Assembly (NCBI GenBank): GCA_014169315.1
Contig: AP022133.1
Span: forward strand, 2,108,001-2,172,000
DNA: 64,000 bases
Direction: 5' to 3'
DNA from: Enterobacter cloacae
Lineage (GTDB): Bacteria; Pseudomonadota; Gammaproteobacteria; Enterobacterales; Enterobacteriaceae
This document shows positions 37,060 to 48,581 of the stretch, one piece after another. The position numbers were made by a program, and so were the translations under genes. Each line of letters begins with the position of its first letter. Within the stretch, counting starts at the first letter, position 1. Below the pieces are notes generated by a model. The model made no database searches, was not told the DNA's origin, and saw nothing but the letters and a program-made list of their open reading frames with translations.

Positions 37060-38091
37060 TCAAAACCACTGACCAAACCGTTTGATATAAAAGCGTTTCA
37101 TCCCCTGCGCCACGAGACAGTAGCTCAGAAGCGTCGCCACCAGCCACGGGAAGTAGCTTAACGGCAGCGGCTCAAGCCCCACCATCGCCCCCAGCGGCGA
37201 GAACGGTATATAGATACCGATGACCATAACGCAGGCGGTGGTCAGCAGCACCGGTAGCGTCGCGCGGCTCTGAATAAACGGGATCTTCTGCGTCCTTAAC
37301 ATGTGCACCACCAGCGTTTGCGACAACAGCCCTTCAATAAACCAGCCGGACTGGAACAGCGCCTGGGCCTCAACGTGGTTTGCCGCAAAGACGTACCACA
37401 TCAGCGCAAAGGTGGTGATGTCGAAAATGGACGACGTCGGTCCAATCCACAACATGAAGCGGCCGATGTTTTTGGCATCCCACTTGCGCGGTTTACTCAA
37501 AAACTCTTTATCCATTTTGTCCCACGGTAGCGACAGCTGGGAGATGTCGTACATCAGGTTCTGGATCAGCAGATGGATCGCCAGCATCGGCAGGAACGGG
37601 ATAAACGCGCTGGCTACCAGTACGGAAAAAACGTTGCCGAAGTTAGAGCTGGCGGTCATATTCAGGTACTTGATGATATTGCCGAAGGTTTCACGACCTT
37701 TGATCACGCCTTCTTCCAGCACCATCAGATCTTTTTCCAGCAGGATAATATCCGATGACTCTTTGGCGATATCCGCCGCGCTGTCGACGGAAATGCCCAC
37801 ATCGGCATCGCGGAGTGCCGGAGCATCGTTAATGCCGTCGCCGAGAAAACCGACGGTATGTCCGTTCTTTTGCAGCGCCTTCAGAATGCGGGATTTCTGC
37901 AGTGGCGTCAGTTTGGCGAACACAGAACGTTGCTCCACCGCCTGCGCCAGTTCGCGATCTGACATGGTCTCCACCTCGGTGCCTGTCAGAATACCGTGCG
38001 GATCGATCCCCACCTCAAGGCAGATACGGGCAGTCACCACAGGGTTGTCGCCGGTGAGCACCTTCACCGCCACGCCGTTGTCGCGCAGTGC
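37060..38091 (-). pseudogene. mgtB: MgtB-type Mg2+-importing P-type ATPase, 3' part (split by the Tn7-like element)
   Basis: The last 343 residues of a P3B-type ATPase are present, from ALRDNGVAVKVLTGDNP to RFGQWF. They include the hinge GFLGDGINDAPALRDADVGI and the six C-terminal helices, and are very close to Salmonella MgtB. The N-terminal half, including the phosphorylated DKTGTL aspartate, is missing. The reading frame runs directly into the TGT end of the transposon at 38092, so the gene is broken and cannot transport. The 5' part should lie beyond the other transposon end, outside this window. Confidence 0.93.
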
Positions 38092-38100
38092 TGTCCGAAG

Positions 38101-38168
38101 ACAATAAAGTTGTACACAAAGCACTAAAGTTGTAACCATTCTCAAAAAACGACGCTAATGTTGTATAC
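38101..38168 (+). repeat. Three TnsB-binding-type repeats at the transposon end
   Basis: Three related 15-mers occur in direct orientation: AATAAAGTTGTACAC (38103-38117), ACTAAAGTTGTAACC (38123-38137) and GCTAATGTTGTATAC (38154-38168). Core (A/C)TAA(A/T)GTTGTA, spacings 20 and 31 bp. Multiple spaced 20-22-bp TnsB sites are the defining structure of Tn7-family ends. Confidence 0.88.
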
Positions 38169-38249
38169 TTACTGAATGTGTGGTTATAGGGTTGGAGACT
38201 ATAAAATGCACATATAGGTACGTATCAATGTCGTTTTTTGGGTACGATC

Positions 38250-39092
38250 ATGGGTAGGGGTAGGCGTCTCAAATCCTATTTGGATTATGAAAATGCGCTA
38301 GGTGACGGCATAGGAGTGGGCTATGGCCAAAGTTATCAGCCCTGGCTTAGAGCTCAGGACGTTAAATCCCGTGGAAACCGTTCGATAGTCTTTGGCCTTA
38401 AGACGTTTCGAAACCATCATCTCCTTTCTTCTGTCGAAAGTAACTTTTTCTATCTGGCTGAGTTTAATGACTCGGTGATTGATATCCGGGAACAATTCCC
38501 ACTCTTTCCTCTCCGGCTTACCCAACAAATAGCAAATCATCTACATTTTCAACATCCTATGGTGAGGGGAGTAAGAGGAGTACCTGTCGAAGTTCTGAAT
38601 GTTATGACAACCGATTTTTTACTGACCTTGAGAACTCCTGAAGGCGGACTTCGATACAAAGCTATAGCAGTAAAACATAACGAGAGCATACCTGAACGCG
38701 AAGCCCAAAAACTTGAAATAGAGAGGATGTTTTGGCAGTTGATTGATGTTGAGTTTCAAATTTATGTTGGCTCGGAACTCAATAACGTCGTCGGTAAAAA
38801 CATTTGCTGGGCTACTTCTGTATTAAGAGATGGTTCTGAATTTTATGATAAATATCCTCTTGATAAAATCCTATGGAAGCTTAAACCAGATGTTTATCCC
38901 ATAGTGGGACTACGTGCAATGATTTCATCAATCATTGGGGTAGATGCACAAGAAGCGATGATGTTATTGCAGGCAATGATTGGATTAAAAATGATAAAAA
39001 TTGATTTATCATATCCAATACTCGAAACCGGTCTGATAAAGATAATATCCAATGGCCACTATATAGGACTGAACGCAAATGGATATTATTAG
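38250..39092 (+). CDS. tnsA: Tn7-like transposition endonuclease TnsA
   Basis: TnsA cleaves the 5' ends of the transposon together with TnsB, giving cut-and-paste transposition. The ATG at 38250 gives 280 residues, near the Tn7 length (273). The restriction-endonuclease-like catalytic residues align well: Glu63 in SSVESNFFYLAEF, Asp122 in MTTDFLL, Lys142 in AIAVKHNE (Tn7: E63, D114, K132). A C-terminal winged-helix-like region contacts TnsC in the family. A TTG four codons upstream is an alternative start. It overlaps tnsB by 14 nt. Codon use is AT-rich compared with the chromosome. Confidence 0.92.
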   Translation: MGRGRRLKSYLDYENALGDGIGVGYGQSYQPWLRAQDVKSRGNRSIVFGLKTFRNHHLLSSVESNFFYLAEFNDSVIDIREQFPLFPLRLTQQIANHLHFQHPMVRGVRGVPVEVLNVMTTDFLLTLRTPEGGLRYKAIAVKHNESIPEREAQKLEIERMFWQLIDVEFQIYVGSELNNVVGKNICWATSVLRDGSEFYDKYPLDKILWKLKPDVYPIVGLRAMISSIIGVDAQEAMMLLQAMIGLKMIKIDLSYPILETGLIKIISNGHYIGLNANGYY

Positions 39093-41202
39093 AAATTCAG
39101 TCTGGCTCTCTCAAGGCACTGATTTGCTTGCAGAGGGGCTTTATCGTGTTTTGGATTTTGACAAAAAGGTTGATTTGTTAATTTTGTTTAAAATAAAATC
39201 AGAAAGAACGGGTAAGCCAATTCCTTTCTCATTTTCATTGTTTAAATATTATATTGAATCAAATAGCATAACTTGTAAAGATTATATATACCCTTCATAT
39301 ATGTTAGTAGATGAGAAAGAAATAACAGATGAAGACAGGGGAAGGCGAGATGAAAATTACAATATCATTAAAGATCTTGTAGATGACAGAATGTTTCTGT
39401 TCGACTATGCATTACATAAAAAGTCTCACCTTTTAATGGACTACTCCAGAAATAAAAAAATATCACAATATACTATCAGAACGCTTCTGGCGTTGTACTG
39501 GCGACATGGGCAGGATGTTTATGCATTACTACCCGCATTCTCGAACTGTGGTGCCGCTGGGAAAAGTAGAATCAAACATGAAATTAAACTTGGGAATTCC
39601 AAGAAAAACAGAGCATTACCTAATGAACGTTCACGTGTTTTCATTCTTAATGAAAGAGATATAAATAATATTAGAAAATCTCTCATTATGTATCATTATA
39701 AAGTTAACGGAGATACGATAAAGAAAACATTAGAGAGACATATTGATTTGTATTTTAGGGATGAAATTAAAACAGCGAACTTAGAAAATAGAGCTCCATA
39801 TGTTCCTTCTTTAAAACAATTTTCATACTGGAATAAAAAACTCTTCACTAAAGATTTCTCGATAAAGAAGAAGAACACGAAAAAAGAAATAGACCTCAAA
39901 ATGCGGGCGCTTTTAGGTAGTGCGGCTAATACAACTGTTTTACCGGGTGATGTTTTCGAAATAGACTCAACTGTCGCTGATGTACATCTTATTTCGAGTT
40001 TAAACAGACGAAAAGTCATTGGGCGCCCAACTATTTATACAGTGGTGGATCGCGCAACAAGAATGATTGTTGGCCTTCATGTTTCTTTATACCATGCTTC
40101 ATGGCGAGCTGCCCGACAAGCGTTAGCAAATTGCTTTATGCCAAAAAAAGAATATTGTAGATTATTTGGAATCTCTATTACTAATGATGATTGGCCTTGT
40201 TCTCATATTCCATTAACATTGATGTGTGACAACGGGGAGATGATTGGTCTTAAACCTCAGGAAAAGATGACCCCCCTGACAAAACTTGAGTTTGCGCCAG
40301 TCGGTAGAGGCGACAGAAAAAGCATTGTTGAACGCTGTTTCGGTATTCTAAATGATGAAGTTATTCATAGGCTTATTGGAACAACACGAAGGGGTAAGAT
40401 TGTTAAAGGAGAGCCAACACCGCAATCCAGGGCTTGTTTAACGATTCAGGAGGTCCCGTCTTTACTGATTCGGGAGATACTTGCACATAATCAGAGAACA
40501 TATGAAGAACTGGCTTATATCAATCCCTTACTGATTGAAAATGATCTCGTAATATCACCAAAAAATAGTTGGATGATAAGCTTAAAGCACGGGAGATTCA
40601 GCGCAAGAGCCGTTGGGGCCGACGAAGTGATCGCACGATTGTTGATCCCTGTGAACGCTAACATTACCGCCGGTGGGATTCAGTACAATAATCTTTTTTA
40701 TGAATGTGATCCAGACATTGCATCAGGTGCCAGAGTATTTGGAAGAACCACTTGTGAAGCAAGAATAGATGACAATTGCGTAGATTATATATATGTAAGA
40801 TTTGACAAAAATAGCATTTTCAAAAAGCATTACCTGCTTAAGAAAAGAGATATATTTAAAGGTAAAGCTCATCTTGATACAGATGTAATGGCTGATTGGG
40901 TAGATACTCAAAAAGAAATTAATTTATTTACTCTGAATTCACTCAGCAATATCAATAATAAAGATGATTTTAACAAGAAAGGTAACGAAAGATTAAATGA
41001 AATATACGAATCTCGACGGGTACATGGTAAAGATATTAAAAAGAACAGGAAAAATGAACTTGATTCATTAGGGCGAACTGATGTTGCTAATGGAAGACCT
41101 GAACCCCTACTTCCGTCATCCAGTAAGGTTCTGCTTTTGCCTGGCCGGGAGGAGAAACAAAGATGGTTAAAAGGTAAGAAGAAGACTGAGGACGCAGAAT
41201 AA
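39079..41202 (+). CDS. tnsB: Tn7-like DDE transposase TnsB
   Basis: TnsB recognises the transposon ends and joins 3' ends to the target. It has 707 residues (Tn7 TnsB 702). The catalytic triad of the Mu/retroviral integrase fold is Asp296 (FEIDSTVADV), Asp384 (LMCDNGEM) and Glu418 (KSIVERCFG), with the expected 33 residues between the second Asp and Glu. The N-terminal helix-turn-helix domains should bind the repeats at 38103-38168. The C-terminal tail is highly charged, as in TnsB where it contacts TnsC. It overlaps tnsA and tnsC, indicating one operon. Confidence 0.95.
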   Translation: MDIIRNSVWLSQGTDLLAEGLYRVLDFDKKVDLLILFKIKSERTGKPIPFSFSLFKYYIESNSITCKDYIYPSYMLVDEKEITDEDRGRRDENYNIIKDLVDDRMFLFDYALHKKSHLLMDYSRNKKISQYTIRTLLALYWRHGQDVYALLPAFSNCGAAGKSRIKHEIKLGNSKKNRALPNERSRVFILNERDINNIRKSLIMYHYKVNGDTIKKTLERHIDLYFRDEIKTANLENRAPYVPSLKQFSYWNKKLFTKDFSIKKKNTKKEIDLKMRALLGSAANTTVLPGDVFEIDSTVADVHLISSLNRRKVIGRPTIYTVVDRATRMIVGLHVSLYHASWRAARQALANCFMPKKEYCRLFGISITNDDWPCSHIPLTLMCDNGEMIGLKPQEKMTPLTKLEFAPVGRGDRKSIVERCFGILNDEVIHRLIGTTRRGKIVKGEPTPQSRACLTIQEVPSLLIREILAHNQRTYEELAYINPLLIENDLVISPKNSWMISLKHGRFSARAVGADEVIARLLIPVNANITAGGIQYNNLFYECDPDIASGARVFGRTTCEARIDDNCVDYIYVRFDKNSIFKKHYLLKKRDIFKGKAHLDTDVMADWVDTQKEINLFTLNSLSNINNKDDFNKKGNERLNEIYESRRVHGKDIKKNRKNELDSLGRTDVANGRPEPLLPSSSKVLLLPGREEKQRWLKGKKKTEDAE

Positions 41203-42650
41203 TGAACCTTATACGGAGCGTTTCAGCGATATATAAAGAACAGGAGTTACCTGAGTATCGTGGCAACCCCTTAATTGAAGCACTTCCTGAAGCGCTTACG
41301 GAAGATGAAGTACTTCTGGAAATGAGTTATTTTCCCGAAATTGACGAAAAAATCCGCTGGACTGCCCCGGCGAATGTTAGAGAGCAGTATGTCGAACGTA
41401 TAAAGAAATTCCGTTGCCCTCAAACCAATCTTATCCAGGCTTATAAAATGATTTTACGGGCACTTAGGGAAAGCTATGCAGCCCGTAATCCTTTAAAAAG
41501 CGGAACTATTCAATATCTTCATTACTATGGGACTGAGCGTCCTGATATTGAACCCGAAAGTGGATATTTTAAATCCCAGGCTGAAACCATTACGATAGTT
41601 GGAATGAGTGGTTCTGGAAAAACTACCATGATCGAGCAAGTCATGGATCATTTCCCTCAGATTATAGAACACAGCAGCTATAAAGGAGTTTTTCCCGGCT
41701 TCAGTAAGCAAATCGTATGGGTAAAGATTAATTGTCCATACAACTCAAGTGTGAGAGACCTTTGTGAAGAGATTTTACAAAAATTAGATGATGCAATTGG
41801 TATTGAACGAACTACACCAGAGATTAGAAATGGTGCTCTGGCTCGCCAGATTGCGCAAAGAATAAAATCATCATTTTTAGGTATCCTTGTTATTGATGAA
41901 ATGCAGAGGCTAAAATTTTCAAGAACTGGAGGTGAGAGTAAGTTGATTGATTTTTTACATGAAATTGTAGATTCGATGGGGGTATCTATGGTTTTTTGTG
42001 GAAATCATCCTTTTGACGAGACTCTGACAAAGAAAATGAGAATTGCCAGGCGGGCAGAGTCTGGTGGTTATATGAAAATTTCAAATGTCAGATACGACTC
42101 ACAAGACTGGCAATCGTTTATTCATTATTTATGGCCATTACAATGGACAAATGTTGAAACACCATTAAATGATGAGTTAAACGAAAAATTATTCATTTTA
42201 TCTAAAGGCAACATTGGATTGGCTCAGATGATTTATCGGGGGGCACAATTAAAGGTTATCGGTAGCGGTAATGAAATCATAACTGGTGCAGTCTTGTCGG
42301 CCTCTGTACCGGTACTCGTAAGCCATACGGAGGAATATAAGGATACTTTACTCCCGGGGGCAGCGACTGAAGACGAGGAAGCCAAATGGCTCTCTGCATC
42401 TAATGAAAGTGATGCTTCGGCTAAGTTCATGTCAGAGAAGCCCTTAAAAGCTTTGATCCCTGGAGATATAGACAGGCCACAGCACAAGGAATTCGTAAGA
42501 AAAATAGACGAGGTTATGCGCAATTTCGACGAGAAAATACTGTCTCTTGACCATGATCTTGTTATCACCAGAACAGCTGAAAAGAAAAATACCTACGATG
42601 CTCTTCAGCGTTGCGGGCTTATAAATACAGATCCACTTAATAAATTGTAA
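41202..42650 (+). CDS. tnsC: Tn7-like AAA+ regulator TnsC
   Basis: TnsC is an ATPase that forms rings or filaments on target DNA and bridges the target selector (TniQ/TnsD) to TnsAB. It has 482 residues. Walker A is GMSGSGKT (residues about 134-141) and Walker B LGILVIDEMQRLKFS, followed by a sensor I-type region MVFCGNHPF. It is somewhat shorter than Tn7 TnsC (555). The one-base overlap with tnsB implies coupled translation. Confidence 0.93.
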   Translation: MNLIRSVSAIYKEQELPEYRGNPLIEALPEALTEDEVLLEMSYFPEIDEKIRWTAPANVREQYVERIKKFRCPQTNLIQAYKMILRALRESYAARNPLKSGTIQYLHYYGTERPDIEPESGYFKSQAETITIVGMSGSGKTTMIEQVMDHFPQIIEHSSYKGVFPGFSKQIVWVKINCPYNSSVRDLCEEILQKLDDAIGIERTTPEIRNGALARQIAQRIKSSFLGILVIDEMQRLKFSRTGGESKLIDFLHEIVDSMGVSMVFCGNHPFDETLTKKMRIARRAESGGYMKISNVRYDSQDWQSFIHYLWPLQWTNVETPLNDELNEKLFILSKGNIGLAQMIYRGAQLKVIGSGNEIITGAVLSASVPVLVSHTEEYKDTLLPGAATEDEEAKWLSASNESDASAKFMSEKPLKALIPGDIDRPQHKEFVRKIDEVMRNFDEKILSLDHDLVITRTAEKKNTYDALQRCGLINTDPLNKL

Positions 42651-42691
42651 TGAGGTCATCAGTTCGTAACGGTCAAAGAGAGGTGGGGTAA

Positions 42692-44176
42692 ATGAGAATG
42701 TTGTCTGTTTTACCTGATGAATCCTTGTTCAGTCGGTTTTGTCGGACAGCTACCGTGTACGGTATGTCCCCATCTTCTCTGTTAACGATCATTTTCCACA
42801 AACCTGATATGAGCGTCCATCCAATTCTCAATTCAGGATTAAAGGCTATTTCTCTTCATACATCCGAAAGTGCAGACCAGCTCTGGCATGAACAGACTTT
42901 ACTCCCTCTGTTTGCCTGGGCACTACCAATCAGTCGTAATGAAATTATGGATTTCAACACGACCCCTGCCAGGCTTAATCGATTGTGCCGCCTTAGTAAT
43001 TTTTCACTAGGACAGCGGACACTATTGAAGTTTTGCCCGGTTTGCGCTCGTGAAGATACTTTTCATTATGGTGTTACTTATTGGCATCTGGCGCATCAAC
43101 TTCATGGGGTTACAACCTGCCATCGGCACCAGGTAGTGCTTGAAAGCATCAATGTCCCTTCTGCACCGCACATACGTATTGGACTGATGCCTCCTGTTTC
43201 GTATACAGAACAACTCAGCAATGAGACAGACTTCGATTTTGCTAAATTTTGTTATGAGTCCATAAATATAATCAGAAGAAAAGAAATTTGTCACCCAAAT
43301 TACATGGATGTACTTAAAAAGTTAAATTTATTATCATTGGACGGGAATCTGAAGAAAAATGTATTTTACGCACATGTTTATGCTAAGTGCCAGTTATTTG
43401 GGGAGGGTTCATCGGAGCTTCTACCGACATCCCTTACTGATTATCACTACTGGGAGCCTATACTCAAAGATAAATGTTGTCAGCATCCCACAAAACACCT
43501 TTTGCTTTGTTATTGTCTGTTAAATACTTGCTGGCCAACGTATGCAGGAAGTCGTCCTAATAAAAAGAAAGAAATCTTTAAAAGTCATAAGGAATACAGC
43601 TTTCATATGGCTGAAAATAATACTAGTGTTAGCAACCTTGGGAGAGAATTTAATCGCAGCAGATGTTACATTAAAACACTTATTTATAAAAAATACCTGA
43701 GGGCGTTTAAGCGAAACACAAAAATTAATATATTCACTGAATTGCTTATCAAGTCTATGGCTGTAAGGGGGTTTAGTCTGGCATCCATAGCTGAGAAAAA
43801 CTCATTATCGGAAGGAACTGTATCCTCTGTAATTTCATCTTGTTACGGTTTATGCTCATGGCGTAAAAAATGTAAAAAAGATTCTTTAAGACGGCGTCAT
43901 AAGCAGAAAATATTAAGATTTATACATAATCAATCCATTTCTGTAACGCGAAAGTTAGTCAAGGAAAGTTGTTATGCTAGTTTCTTTTGGCTAAATAAAC
44001 ATGAAAATGGCTGGCTTAATTCCTGTCTTCCTAAAGCAGTACGATGTTATAGAAATAAAAGAGTAGACTGGAGCGAGAGAGATATAATCTCATCATCATT
44101 AATAAATGTTGTTTTATCTCAGGGGCAATACCCGATGTCACTTACAAGCCTGGATGCTTTACTGGGGGGGGCATAA
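42692..44176 (+). CDS. tnsD: TniQ/TnsD-family target-selection protein
   Basis: This 494-residue protein of TnsD size begins with the TniQ domain (MLSVLPDESLFSRFCRTATVYG). The TniQ zinc finger is plain: Cys115-x2-Cys118, Trp131, Cys143-x2-His146 (FCPVCARED...WHLAHQLHGVTTCHRH). The C-terminal half is basic and probably contains helix-turn-helix DNA-binding units that choose the target site. It has a good ribosome site (GAGGTGGGG) 41 nt after tnsC. Which DNA it recognises is unknown. Given the insertion at mgtB, a target there is possible, but TnsD proteins usually direct insertion outside genes. Confidence 0.88.
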   Translation: MRMLSVLPDESLFSRFCRTATVYGMSPSSLLTIIFHKPDMSVHPILNSGLKAISLHTSESADQLWHEQTLLPLFAWALPISRNEIMDFNTTPARLNRLCRLSNFSLGQRTLLKFCPVCAREDTFHYGVTYWHLAHQLHGVTTCHRHQVVLESINVPSAPHIRIGLMPPVSYTEQLSNETDFDFAKFCYESINIIRRKEICHPNYMDVLKKLNLLSLDGNLKKNVFYAHVYAKCQLFGEGSSELLPTSLTDYHYWEPILKDKCCQHPTKHLLLCYCLLNTCWPTYAGSRPNKKKEIFKSHKEYSFHMAENNTSVSNLGREFNRSRCYIKTLIYKKYLRAFKRNTKINIFTELLIKSMAVRGFSLASIAEKNSLSEGTVSSVISSCYGLCSWRKKCKKDSLRRRHKQKILRFIHNQSISVTRKLVKESCYASFFWLNKHENGWLNSCLPKAVRCYRNKRVDWSERDIISSSLINVVLSQGQYPMSLTSLDALLGGA

Positions 44177-44260
44177 CTGGCTTTTGAAATACAGAGATAA
44201 ACTACCAATGACAATGACACTTCTCAGGAAAAAGAATCTAATTAAATAAGAGGGAGTGAT

Positions 44261-45187
44261 ATGGTTTACGAAAATGAATTGTGGCACAGTTTTCTTCTGC
44301 GTTCACAGATAATGTATAACTTATCCAATTGCAGGAACATAATATCTAAGCATGGTGAACTAAGGTACGATGCCTTTCCTCGGCTCGAACTGATTGATAT
44401 GTACAAATTGCATAGTTTGCAGGATATATATGACATTCTTGCCACAAGAAATGGTTATATACTAACTTCCAATATAGTGTCGTTATCTTCTGGTGTTTAC
44501 GGGTATTTCAACGCTGTTGAAGATGCCTGTCGAAATAATTTACACATAACTAATTCATATCCATTGGTAAACATCTCAAAGATTCATTACTGCCATAAAT
44601 GTATTATTGAAGATATACACTCTAAAGGCATTGGTTATCTTCGTCATAGATGGTTGTTTGAATCTAAATGTGCAGCTCATAGTACCTGTTTATATGAGGT
44701 TTGTTTTGACAACTATTTGGATGCAGTGAAAGGACTTAGTGACTTAATTATAAGTGGAATAAATCCTCATGGTTATTGTTCCCTTGTGGTTGACATTTCA
44801 AATCCTTTCAAAACTCCAGTGTATTTATTGCCATGTGCCAGGGATAAAATTTTAAAATGGATTTCTGACAATAAAAATGAGCTGGTTTACTTTCTCTTTG
44901 ACCTCTTTAAAAGTAAATCGCATTCTAGTTTATTAAAGGTTATTGAAGTCAGGATAATGCATAGTAGTTATATTTCTGCGGTGTTCAGGATATTGAGTGA
45001 GGTTAATTTTTGTAATTTCAACTCATTTATTACCGATTTATTCGAGGACGTAAGTTATGCCTCTGTTGGACTTGATGATTATTCTGTTAATGTGGATTTT
45101 CTCAGGCTAAAAGCCGCAGATTGCAAATTTTGCCGGTTCAATGGTAAAAATTTTTGCTCACTTTTTAATGTAAAGCTTCTTCGCTAA
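44261..45187 (+). CDS. Second, divergent TniQ-type protein
   Basis: The 308-residue protein starts with a TniQ-like ELWHSFLLRSQIMYNLSN (compare ESLxSWxxR). It has a complete TniQ zinc-finger pattern: Cys111-x2-Cys114, Trp131, Cys137-x2-His140 (YCHKCIIED...WLFESKCAAHSTCL). A second cysteine group (CKFCRFNGKNFC) lies near the C-terminus. It occupies the place of tnsE in Tn7 but is unlike TnsE as I know it. AGGGAG precedes the ATG. It could be an alternative target selector or a partner/antagonist of the first TniQ. The DNA is very AT-rich. Confidence 0.7.
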   Translation: MVYENELWHSFLLRSQIMYNLSNCRNIISKHGELRYDAFPRLELIDMYKLHSLQDIYDILATRNGYILTSNIVSLSSGVYGYFNAVEDACRNNLHITNSYPLVNISKIHYCHKCIIEDIHSKGIGYLRHRWLFESKCAAHSTCLYEVCFDNYLDAVKGLSDLIISGINPHGYCSLVVDISNPFKTPVYLLPCARDKILKWISDNKNELVYFLFDLFKSKSHSSLLKVIEVRIMHSSYISAVFRILSEVNFCNFNSFITDLFEDVSYASVGLDDYSVNVDFLRLKAADCKFCRFNGKNFCSLFNVKLLR

Positions 45188-45549
45188 TTTTTACTTCATT
45201 TATAAACTACTAAGAAAGCTAATAAGATAGGGTTATATATTTTGATTAGGGCGGGAATAAATTATCACTTCCCGAGTATCCCTGGGGGTTACCACCTGAG
45301 TATGATGCCGGTTAGCAACAACGTCTAAAAGACCTACGATCACGATAAATGTCACTGGGTCACTCTCAAGCAAAGTGGTCAGGGGTGCTAGATACCAGTA
45401 CTGCTTACTCAACACGGCCTTGTTTTTGAAAGATGCCGAATCTTGGCAAGAGGCGTATTACAGCCTATAGTCTGTTAATGAGTATTACAGCTTATCTGCT
45501 GTAAATCCATTCGTTGTGCTTGTTAACCCGTCGATACGGAAGATCACTT
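45188..45549. other. Intergenic region between the second TniQ gene and the hipB-like gene
   Basis: These 362 bp contain no convincing gene. The part near 45460-45520 has a loose direct repeat (TATTACAGCCTATAGTCTGTTAATG / TATTACAGCTTATCTGCTGTAAA type) that could be the operator of the hipB-like antitoxin, since such antitoxins autoregulate through repeated sites. Binding is not shown by sequence alone. Confidence 0.45.
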
Positions 45550-45614
45550 ATGAACACTCAATACGCTTTGAAGACCTTGAAGGGGTCGTCTCAGAAAACG
45601 GAAAATAAAGCACG

Positions 45615-48581
45615 CTAAGCCGGTTGCAGCGGCCGTAGCGGCCTGAACTTGCCCGCGCCGATCTTGGCGCTGCTGCGCCAGAGGTAATCGCCGGTCAGGT
45701 TGATGTGCTCCCAGCCGAGCGGCGACAGGTACTGCAACAGGCCGTCATCGACGGCTTGACCGTGGCCACGCAAGGCGTTCGCGGCCCGCTCCAGATAGAC
45801 CGTGTTCCATAGCACGATGGCCGCCGTCACCAGGTTGAGGCCGCTGGCCCGGTAGCGCTGCTGCTCGAAGCTGCGGTCGCGGATTTCCCCCAGGCGGTTG
45901 AAGAACACGGCGCGGGCCAGCGCGTTGCGCGCCTCGCCTTTGTTCAGCCCGGCATGCACGCGGCGGCGCAGCTCGACGCTTTGCAGCCAGTCCAGGATGA
46001 ACAGTGTGCGCTCGATGCGTCCCAGCTCACGCAGGGCGACGGCCAGGCCGTTCTGGCGCGGGTAGCTGCCAAGCTTCCTGAGCATCAGCGAGGCCGTCGC
46101 CGTGCCCTGCTTGATCGAGGTGGCCATCCGCAGGATTTCATCCCAATGGGCGCGGACGTGCTTGATGTTGAGCGTGCCGCCGATCATCGGTTTCAACGCC
46201 TCGTAGGTGGCATCGCCCTTCGGGATGTAGAGCTTGGTGTCGCCCAGGTCACGAATGCGCGGGGCGAAGCGGAAGCCCAGCAGGTGCATCAACGCGAAGA
46301 CGTGGTCCGTGAACCCTGCCGTGTCGGTGTAGTGCTCCTCGATCCGCAGGTCGGATTCGTGATACAGCAGGCCGTCGAGCACGTAGGTCGAGTCGCGCAC
46401 GCCGACGTTCACGACCTTGGTGTGGAACGGCGCGTACTGGTCGGAGATATGGGTGTAGAACGTCCGCCCTGGGCTGCTGCCGTATTTCGGATTGATGTGG
46501 CCGGTGCTCTCGGCCTTGCTGCCGGTGCGGAAGTTCTGGCCGTCCGACGATGACGTGGTGCCGTCGCCCCAATGCTCGGCGAAGGGATGTCGGAACTGCG
46601 CGTTGACCAGCTCGGCCAGTGCCGCCCCGTAGGTTTCGTCGCGGATGTGCCAGGCTTGCAGCCAGGCCAGCTTGGCGTAGGTCGTGCCGGGGCACGATTC
46701 CGCCATCTTGGTCAGGCCCAGGTTGATCGCGTCGGCGAGGATCGTGGTCAGCAACAGGTTTTTGTCCTTGGCCAGGTCGCCTGACTTCAGGTGGGCGAAG
46801 TGCCGGGTGAAGCCCGTCCATTCGTCTACCTCCAGCAGCAATTCGGTGATCTTGACGTGCGGTAGGATCATCGCCGTCTGGTCGATCAGGGCCTGTGCGG
46901 TATCGGGCACCGCCGCATCGAGCGGCGTGATCTTCAGGCCCGACTCCGTGATGATGGCGTCCGGCAGCTCGTTGGCCAGCGCCATGCGGTTGACGGTGGC
47001 GAGCTGCGTTTCCAGCAGCGTCAGCCGGTCATGCAGGTACTGGTCGCAATCGGTGGCCACGGCCAGCGGCAATTCGCTGGCCTGCTTGAGGCTGGCGAAT
47101 TTCGCGGGCGGCACCAGGTAGTCCTCGAAGTCCTTGAACTGGCGCGAGCCTTGCACCCAGATGTCGCCGGAGCGCAGCGCGTTCTTCAGCTCCGACAGCG
47201 CGCACAGTTCGTAGTAGCGCCGGTCGATGCCGGTGTCGGTCATCACCAGCTTCTGCCAGCGCGGCTTGATGAACTCGGTCGGCGCGTCGGTGGGCACCTT
47301 GCGGGCGTTGTCGCTGTTCATGCTGCGCAGCACCTCGATGGCGTCGAGTACGTCCTTGGCGGCGGGCGCGGCCCGCAACTTGAGCACGTCGAGAAATTCC
47401 GGCGCGTAGCGGCGCAGCGTGGCGTAGCTCTCGCCGATGCGGTGCAGGAAATCGAAGTCCTCGGGTTGCGCGAGCCGCTGCGCTTCGGTGACGCTCTCGG
47501 CGAAAGCATCCCAGGACATGACGGCCTCGATGGCGGCGAACGGATCGCGGCCCGCTTGCTTGGCCTCGATCAGCGCCTGGCCGATGCGCCCGAACAGCCG
47601 CACCTTGGCATTGATCGCCTTGCCGGATGCCTGGAACTGCTGCTGATGCTTGTTCTTGGCGGCATTGAACAGCTTGCCCAGGATGCGGTCATGCAGGTCG
47701 ATGATTTCGTCGGTGACGGTGGCCATGCCCTCGATGGCGAGCGCCACCAGGGTCGCGTAACGCCGCTGCGGCTCGAACTTCGCCAGGTCGGCGGGCGTCA
47801 TCTGGCCGCCCTCGCGGGCGATCTTGAGCAGCCGGTTCTGGTGAACCAGCCGCTCGATGCCGGAGGGCAGGTCGAGCGCCTGCCACGCCTTGAGGCGTTC
47901 GATGTGTTCCAGCATGTGCCGCGAGTTCGGTTTGACCGGGGATTGCCGCAGCCAGGCCAGCCACGTCGTCTTGCCGTTGTCGCGGCGCTTGAGCAGATCG
48001 TCGAGGCGACGGCGATGCACGTCCGTCAGCGGCTCAGCCAAGGCGTCGTAGAGACGCCGGTTGGCGCGGGTAATCGCTTCGGCGCTCGCCCGCTCGACGG
48101 CGTTGAGGGCGGGCACAATGACCGACTGCCGCCGCAGGTGCTCGATCAAGGCTCTGGCCAGCACGATGCCCTTGTCGGTTTGCATGGCCAGCTCGGTCAG
48201 CAACTGGACAGCCTGCCGGTAGTGGCCAATCGTGAACGGCTGGAAGCCGAACACCGTTTGCAGCTCGACCAGGTGCTCGCGTCGGGTCTGCTCACGCTGC
48301 CCGTACTCGTCCCAGCTTTCGATGCCGACCTTGAGCTGGTTGGCGACCAGTCTCAGCAATGGCGGGAACGGTGGCTCATCAGCGCCAAGGATGACGCCGG
48401 GAAAGCGCAGGTAGCAGAGCTGCACCGCGAAGCCCAGCCGATTGGCCGGGCCGCGCCGCTGCCGGATGATGGAGAGGTCGCTTTCGCTGAACGTGTAGTG
48501 ACGGATCAACTCATCCTTGGTGTCCGGCAACGCCAGCAGGCTTTCGCGCTCGGCGGCGGAGAGGATCGAACGGCGGGGCAT
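45615..48581 (-). CDS. tnpA: Tn3-family transposase (Tn21 subgroup)
   Basis: This is a 988-residue replicative transposase that forms cointegrates. It is highly similar to Tn21 TnpA from [20 protein letters not shown] onward. The catalytic C-terminal half includes [49 protein letters not shown] and the Glu region [19 protein letters not shown]. The stop codon lies inside the left inverted repeat. AAGGAAACCGC precedes the ATG. Full length, so it is likely active. Confidence 0.96.

What the first reader, a model, noticed from the sequence alone, without database searches (positions are those of the whole stretch)
38092..45187. Tn7-like transposon with two different TniQ-type target selectors
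tnsA, tnsB, tnsC and a 494-aa TniQ/TnsD are followed by a 308-aa protein that also carries the full TniQ zinc-finger pattern (C111-x2-C114, W131, C137-x2-H140) and an extra C-terminal cysteine group. In Tn7 the fifth gene is tnsE, which this does not resemble. Two TniQ proteins in one element suggest two targeting pathways, for example one chromosomal and one for another DNA class. No CRISPR array or cas genes are seen to explain it.
Basis: partly seen in the sequence, partly recalled or inferred. Interest (0 to 1): 0.85.

Follow-up and report, generated by a model that had tools for sequence, protein, structure and literature searches.

The report
Tn7-like transposon with two target selectors
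This is a battered copy of a widespread metal-resistance transposon that carries two different target-choosing proteins, and related copies sit mostly at one chromosomal gene or at one particular spot on large transmissible plasmids, which suggests one protein for each destination.

Summary

The element is the Tn6230-like sil/pco Tn7 relative. "Two TnsD proteins" in it were noted in 2012, and dual TniQ-TnsD loci are common, so the bare observation is not new. What I found no print for is the target census. In E. coli, 645 genomes have it at the yhiN 3' end, against 712 with any right-end match. Of 581 plasmid records with the right end, junctions at one IncH locus were counted in 536 (IncHI2) plus 42 (IncHI1). 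That locus was entered at least four times, same orientation, with different 5-bp duplications, about 40 bp from a palindrome. A divergent relative with the same gene pair sits at yhiN and on an IncC plasmid in one cell.

Best reading: TnsD homes to yhiN, P5 to the plasmid site (inferred). The window copy is degraded: inserted in an mgtB-like gene, left end not found, tnsD shortened.

The parts
38092..38391 (+). Right (tnsA-proximal) end of the element, beginning TGTCCGAAGACAATAAAG; flush with an interrupted mgtB-like gene
   Evidence: Flush junctions in relatives; same end on own plasmid C2
38238..39092 (+). tnsA (284 aa from TTG; relatives are annotated from the ATG equivalent to 38250)
   Evidence: PF08722 1.4e-15; annotation of relatives
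39079..41202 (+). tnsB transposase, 707 aa
   Evidence: Annotated transposase in near-identical relatives; no Pfam hit; homologous to tnsB of distant elements
41202..42650 (+). tnsC AAA ATPase, 482 aa
   Evidence: PF13401 8.3e-19, PF05621 1.4e-11
42692..44176 (+). tnsD (TniQ plus TnsD domain), 494 aa; shortened and with a different C-terminus compared with 518 aa in most relatives read
   Evidence: PF06527 6.5e-21, PF15978 2.1e-13; length comparison
44261..45187 (+). P5, second TniQ-type protein, 308 aa, no recognised DNA-binding domain
   Evidence: dN/dS 0.26 against the E. coli-type copy
45550..45581 (+). First 32 bases of the HTH_3 gene that follows P5 in relatives, cut off by the Tn3-family element
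   Evidence: position of the HTH gene in L027, full-length alignment, HTH_3
37060..38091 (-). 3' part of an mgtB-like Mg2+ P-type ATPase gene (codons 567-910 of a G005 homologue) interrupted by the right end; a match to the first 49 codons lies about 42 kb away beside an mgtC-like gene (gene names from recall)
45582..48581 (-). Start of a Tn3-family element (terminal GGGGTCGTCTCAG, transposase 45615-48581) that truncates the Tn7-like element; not part of it

Best explanation
A Tn6230-like Tn7 relative with two site-specific homing pathways that share TnsA, TnsB and TnsC. TnsD (TniQ core plus long DNA-binding C-terminus) recognises the 3' end of chromosomal yhiN and directs insertion there. P5 (TniQ core only) directs insertion into a fixed locus on IncH conjugative plasmids, 39-43 bp from a palindrome and just upstream of a DUF4942 gene, taking the place that TnsE has in Tn7 and CRISPR effectors have in CASTs. 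Shown: P5 is TniQ-like; insertions cluster at two unrelated sequences; the plasmid locus was entered several times independently. Inferred: P5 is the plasmid selector; it acts through TnsC; being short, it probably reads a DNA-bound protein at the palindrome rather than DNA alone.
For: P5 fold and zinc ligands. Purifying selection on P5, dN/dS 0.26 and 0.16 in two comparisons. yhiN junction in 645 E. coli genomes; any right-end match in 712 genomes, 674 chromosomal and 58 plasmid places. Right end (>=80% of 200 bp) in 581 plasmid records; IncHI2 junction in 536, IncHI1 junction in 42. Four distinct plasmid events by duplication and position: TGTCC (L071), CCTAC (L070 and own plasmid C2) and GGGTA (L092) within a few bp on IncHI2, GGTGG (L069) on IncHI1, all in one orientation; an empty IncHI2 site seen. 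No similarity between yhiN and plasmid flanks beyond a 10-bp match. On the right-end side IncHI1 and IncHI2 share only short blocks, one holding the palindrome; the palindrome pattern occurs without mismatch at two places only in a 275,801-bp IncHI2 plasmid, 262 bp apart, both beside the site. Divergent elements pair TnsD with a P5-family TniQ; one sits at yhiN (L102), another at yhiN and on an IncC plasmid in the same strain, 18,880 bp each.
Against: Off-site insertions exist: window in the mgtB-like gene, E. coli ECONIH4 in pdxK, L093, L099, Pantoea L046, and a C. freundii plasmid without an IncH replicon type, with a perfect GAAGA duplication, a 518-aa tnsD and P5. In the own genus 2 of 6 right-end flanks read are off-site. 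Record counts are not event counts; many IncHI2 records are inherited remnants. Homologous exchange between plasmids could copy junctions. IncHI1 and IncHI2 share the downstream gene (67% over 765 bp), so these are one homologous locus. The three element types seen at yhiN have both TnsD and P5-family genes, so co-occurrence alone does not say which does what. P5 model confidence is moderate. Some P5-family genes have no tns genes detected in the fetched flank (L047, L104, L107).
Confidence: 0.68

Rival explanations
1. TnsD alone selects both sites and P5 is an accessory or regulator, for example bridging TnsD to TnsC, as TniQ and TnsF act together in Tn6022.
For: In Tn6022 two proteins are both needed for one target (PMC10293859, passages). 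P5 has no recognised DNA-binding domain. Both genes are kept together in yhiN elements.
Against: yhiN and IncH flanks share no real similarity, so one reader would need two specificities. Copies with shortened tnsD (L027, L092) sit at the IncHI2 site.
Confidence: 0.17
2. P5 targets a general plasmid or replication feature, like Tn7 TnsE, and the clustering on IncH plasmids is descent from few insertions.
For: Off-site insertions, including one in a plasmid without an IncH replicon type. Many IncHI2 records are near-identical.
Against: At least four insertions with different duplications fall at the same locus and orientation on IncHI1 and IncHI2; junctions there were counted in 536 plus 42 records, against 581 with the right end.
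Confidence: 0.1
3. P5 is a decaying duplicate of TniQ without a function of its own.
For: Low Pfam score; more divergent than TnsB and TnsC.
Against: Open frame in the close copies checked, dN/dS well below 1; a P5-family partner is kept in elements whose TnsB is only 34-53% identical.
Confidence: 0.05

Closest known systems
Tn6230 and the Tn7-like sil/pco elements (E. coli pMG101-B, pR478, S. Senftenberg)
   Same: tnsABCD plus fifth gene, yhiN 3' end target, plasmid copies on IncHI (PMC10121019, PMC11406308, PMC8417528, PMC3401170, passages)
   Different: Window copy is at an mgtB-like gene, has no recognisable left end and has a shortened tnsD; the plasmid locus is not described as an attachment site in the passages I read
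Tn7 (TnsABC + TnsD or TnsE)
   Same: Two pathways sharing TnsABC; TnsD at a gene 3' end; 5-bp duplications
   Different: Second selector is TniQ-type, not TnsE; the plasmid target is one locus, not any conjugating plasmid
Dual TniQ-TnsD loci (Faure et al. 2023) and type I-B, I-F3 CASTs
   Same: One long TnsD and one short TniQ per element (PMC10293859, sections 10 and 11)
   Different: No CRISPR seen; plasmid homing is to a fixed locus
Tn5053 family TniQ
   Same: TniQ linked to insertion at protein-bound plasmid sites (resolution sites; PMC11406308 passage)
   Different: Different TniQ lineage; here a second TniQ-type protein serves a chromosomal site; what binds the IncH palindrome is unknown

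Membership tests
Tn7-like transposons | tnsA-B-C plus TniQ/TnsD, TGT...ACA ends, 5-bp target duplication | tested here: met
   Genes; ends and duplications in complete relatives; in the window only the right end was found
Tn6230-like (yhiN-homing) subgroup | Insertion at yhiN 3' end by near-identical elements | tested here: met
   Relatives with 95-99.9% identical tns regions sit at yhiN; the window copy does not (own yhiN matches over 394 residues without a break). No Tn6230 reference sequence was compared by name
TniQ (PF06527) for P5 | Pfam gathering score 27 bits | tested here: not met
   15.5 bits for P5 itself; relative P0015 31.7 bits
TniQ (PF06527) for P5 | TniQ fold and CxxC...CxxH zinc ligands | tested here: met
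TnsE (fifth Tn7 gene) | TnsE sequence family | tested here: not met
   Pfam scan to E=1 lists TniQ only
CAST TniQ | CRISPR array or cas genes in the element | tested here: inconclusive
   No repeat array and no Rfam match at 38000-46000; no cas annotated in fetched stretches of relatives; the window copy's cargo is lost

The most novel reading that the evidence does not exclude
A family of short TniQ proteins dedicated to plasmids: each recognises a palindromic maintenance or regulatory site peculiar to one conjugative plasmid group (IncH, IncC), probably through a plasmid-encoded protein bound there, and places the transposon about 32-43 bp away, while a partner TnsD keeps a shared chromosomal home at yhiN. 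The plasmid range of the transposon would then be set by one exchangeable adaptor.
Probability: 0.35. Interest if true: 0.8.

Novelty: new variant of a known kind. Interest (0 to 1): 0.6.

Why it matters
A 2024 review lists Tn6230 as targeting yhiN with molecular details unknown (PMC11406308, passage). The census turns this into a simple two-target test and proposes a further way for Tn7 relatives to reach plasmids besides TnsE and CRISPR. It also offers an explanation for why copper and silver resistance keeps arriving at the same spot on IncHI plasmids.

Tried and rejected
Modelling P5 with 7 close sequences gave pLDDT 35.7 and was not used. Foldseek alone listed no TniQ; only the realignment of its lower-ranked candidates did. 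phmmer of P5 against PDB sequences gave three unrelated hits, best E=0.25; TnsD matched Tn7 TnsD at E=0.0012. The third protein search, with the wider alignment, returned fewer proteins (9) than the second (19) and added none. I looked for a copy of the plasmid palindrome inside the element: the matches on the other strand were, by position, the same palindrome read backwards plus a second plasmid copy. I looked for similarity between IncC, IncHI and yhiN flanks and found none beyond 10 bp. The idea that non-yhiN insertion marks the shortened tnsD was dropped: elements with a 518-aa TnsD also have off-site insertions. The window's left end was sought and not found.

Rows set aside: of the 19 other order-wide genomes with a match I fetched wide stretches of 3 (G567, G629, G710). 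Of the 9 other own-genus genomes with a match I fetched stretches of 8; one (G772, L095) ends before the right end, and G800 was not opened. In one search, 23 of 40 listed records carry a yhiN label at the match; of the 17 without (3 plasmids, 14 chromosomes) I opened one plasmid; several of these genomes hold three copies. L035, L037 and L042 hold no right end. The flanks that I opened were partly chosen for being odd, so their proportions are not estimates. The pdxK copy in ECONIH4 lacks tnsD and P5 in the annotated stretch, so it says nothing about selectors.

Full report
1. What is there. The window holds, on the + strand, tnsA, tnsB, tnsC, tnsD and a fifth gene, P5. The right end starts at 38092 and is flush with the 3' part of an mgtB-like gene; a match to the first 49 codons of that gene lies about 42 kb further on, next to an mgtC-like gene and a transposase-like frame (these gene names are from recall). 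So the element inserted into that gene, and the left junction was later lost: no left end like those of relatives is found on this chromosome. Homology to relatives stops at 45581, where a Tn3-family element begins and cuts the HTH gene that normally follows P5. tnsD is 494 aa here and in two plasmid records, L027 and L092. Of the other loci in which I could read it, 17 give 518 aa (11, 6; 15 distinct genomes or records, since L036/L041 and L039/L046 are the same genomes) and L038 is interrupted at 260. The window copy is therefore a degraded copy.

3. It is the sil/pco element. A near-identical tns region is in 671 of 5,426 E. coli genomes at >=80% coverage, and in 197 plasmid records at >=80% coverage, of 610 with a match. 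Three complete or nearly complete relatives opened carry sil and pco.

4. Where copies sit. Chromosome: the junction yhiN plus right end (600-bp query, >=80% covered) is in 645 E. coli genomes, against 712 genomes with any right-end match. Flanks read elsewhere show the same yhiN 3' sequence in Citrobacter (L036/L041, L045), E. albertii (L043), L038 and, in the own genus, L094, L096, L097 and L098 (yhiN confirmed next to the junction for the last four and L038). In the own genus that is 4 of 6 flanks read; L093 and L099 are elsewhere. In E. coli the yhiN frame runs into the first bases of the element. Plasmids: 581 records have >=80% of the 200-bp right end; the IncHI2 junction is in 536 and the IncHI1 junction in 42. 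A record with two copies could be counted in both. Of 13 plasmids whose right-end flank I read, 12 are at this locus (L003/L021, L027, L069, L070, L071, L073, L074, L076, L077, L078, L105, L106) and one, C. freundii L075/L081, is not.

5. The plasmid locus is a real target. On IncHI2 three positions a few bp apart carry duplications TGTCC (L071), CCTAC (L070, and this genome's own plasmid C2) and GGGTA (L092); on IncHI1 the duplication is GGTGG (L069; the group is named from the typing of NZ_CP030182 and NZ_CP039559, which share the flank); a 78%-identical element (L106) lies at the same IncHI1 position. In the four copies read at both ends the left end faces the DUF4942 gene. An unoccupied plasmid has the uninterrupted sequence (L068). 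Random insertion in plasmids of around 200 kb or more would not do this. The pattern TAGTAAAG-NN-TTNACTA, or a one-base variant of it, ends 39-43 bp from the right end in 5 of 6 flanks tested; L069 has a near form that my expression missed. On the right-end side IncHI1 and IncHI2 share only short blocks, one of them this palindrome, whereas the downstream gene is 67% identical over 765 bp, so the two sites are one homologous locus. In the plasmid of L071 the pattern occurs without mismatch at two places only, both beside the site.

6. Wider support. P5-family genes accompany tnsABC and TnsD in divergent elements: L100, L102, L103 (partial), L108/L128, and convergent to tnsBC and a TniQ in L040. 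L102 sits at yhiN although its TnsB is 34% identical. The L108 type has a second TniQ-type protein of 400 aa (20.3 bits, below the cut-off). It carries a yhiN label at the match in 23 of 40 E. coli records, and its junction with one IncC site is in 18 plasmid records. In E. coli 806883-9-2019 it is at yhiN (duplication TTGCA) and on the IncC plasmid, both 18,880 bp; the IncC copy's duplication is off by one base in that plasmid but perfect (AATGC) in pNDM10505. A conserved 41-bp block, holding an imperfect dyad that ends 32 bp from the IncC insertion, also occurs about 80-110 bp upstream of tyrosine recombinase genes in two other plasmids.

7. Assignment of selectors. TnsD has the long C-terminus (PF15978) expected of direct homing, as in Tn7; P5 does not. 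P5 and tnsD are under similar purifying selection (dN/dS 0.26 and 0.255, tnsD over 480 codons). Copies with shortened tnsD are found at the IncHI2 site (L027, L092). These favour TnsD for yhiN and P5 for plasmids but do not prove it; the off-site insertions show that targeting is leaky.

8. Prior art. Moreno Switt et al. [quoted passage not shown] Hooton et al. 2021 saw transposition between yhiN and yhiM (PMC8417528, abstract and passages). Tn6230 was reported only at yhiN-yhiM in an E. coli survey (PMC10121019, passages). Eight literature searches listed no paper whose title, abstract start or passages that I saw describe the IncH locus as an attachment site; I did not read most of those papers, and subscription papers are not in that library.

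Noticed in passing
window 42692-44176; L027; L092: tnsD is 494 aa with a different C-terminus in the window and in two plasmid records from other hosts, so it looks like a shared lineage feature and not a single assembly slip.
   Followed up: partly
G000:C2 120220 (L003, L021) and 149848-150108 (L072): The same cell's 272-kb plasmid carries both ends of another copy at the IncH locus with a CCTAC duplication; its tns genes are cut after 330 bp, next to Tn3-family-like transposase frames.
   Followed up: partly
L134 1550-20429 and L135 1388-20267: E. coli 806883-9-2019 carries the same 18.9-kb Tn7-like element at chromosomal yhiN and on its IncC plasmid.
   Followed up: yes
L128 4851-4891; L132 2152-2192; L133 2151-2185: A conserved 41-bp block with an imperfect dyad next to the IncC insertion recurs upstream of tyrosine recombinase genes on other plasmids and may be a plasmid resolution site.
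   Followed up: partly
L107 19790-20707: A P5-family TniQ on an IncHI2 plasmid with no tns genes detected in the fetched flank; 25 plasmid records cover at least 80% of this variant.
   Followed up: no
L040 9431-12989: The G409 Tn7-like element lies beside an ATP-dependent-nuclease-like plus UvrD-like helicase pair that resembles Gabija defence (named from recall).
   Followed up: no
L099, L093, L046, L079: Off-site insertions: a DNA-methylase-like frame, an unidentified site, an ABC-transporter-like frame (both frames named from recall), and pdxK.
   Followed up: partly
E. coli 2020S05-013 series: Several E. coli chromosomes hold three right-end matches of the IncC-type Tn7-like element.
   Followed up: no
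G001:C3 1-63 and 6215-7414; G001:C1 2634997-2635911: One genome has a copy away from yhiN and also a contig that starts with a P5 fragment and has yhiN nearby, suggesting a second copy at yhiN.
   Followed up: no
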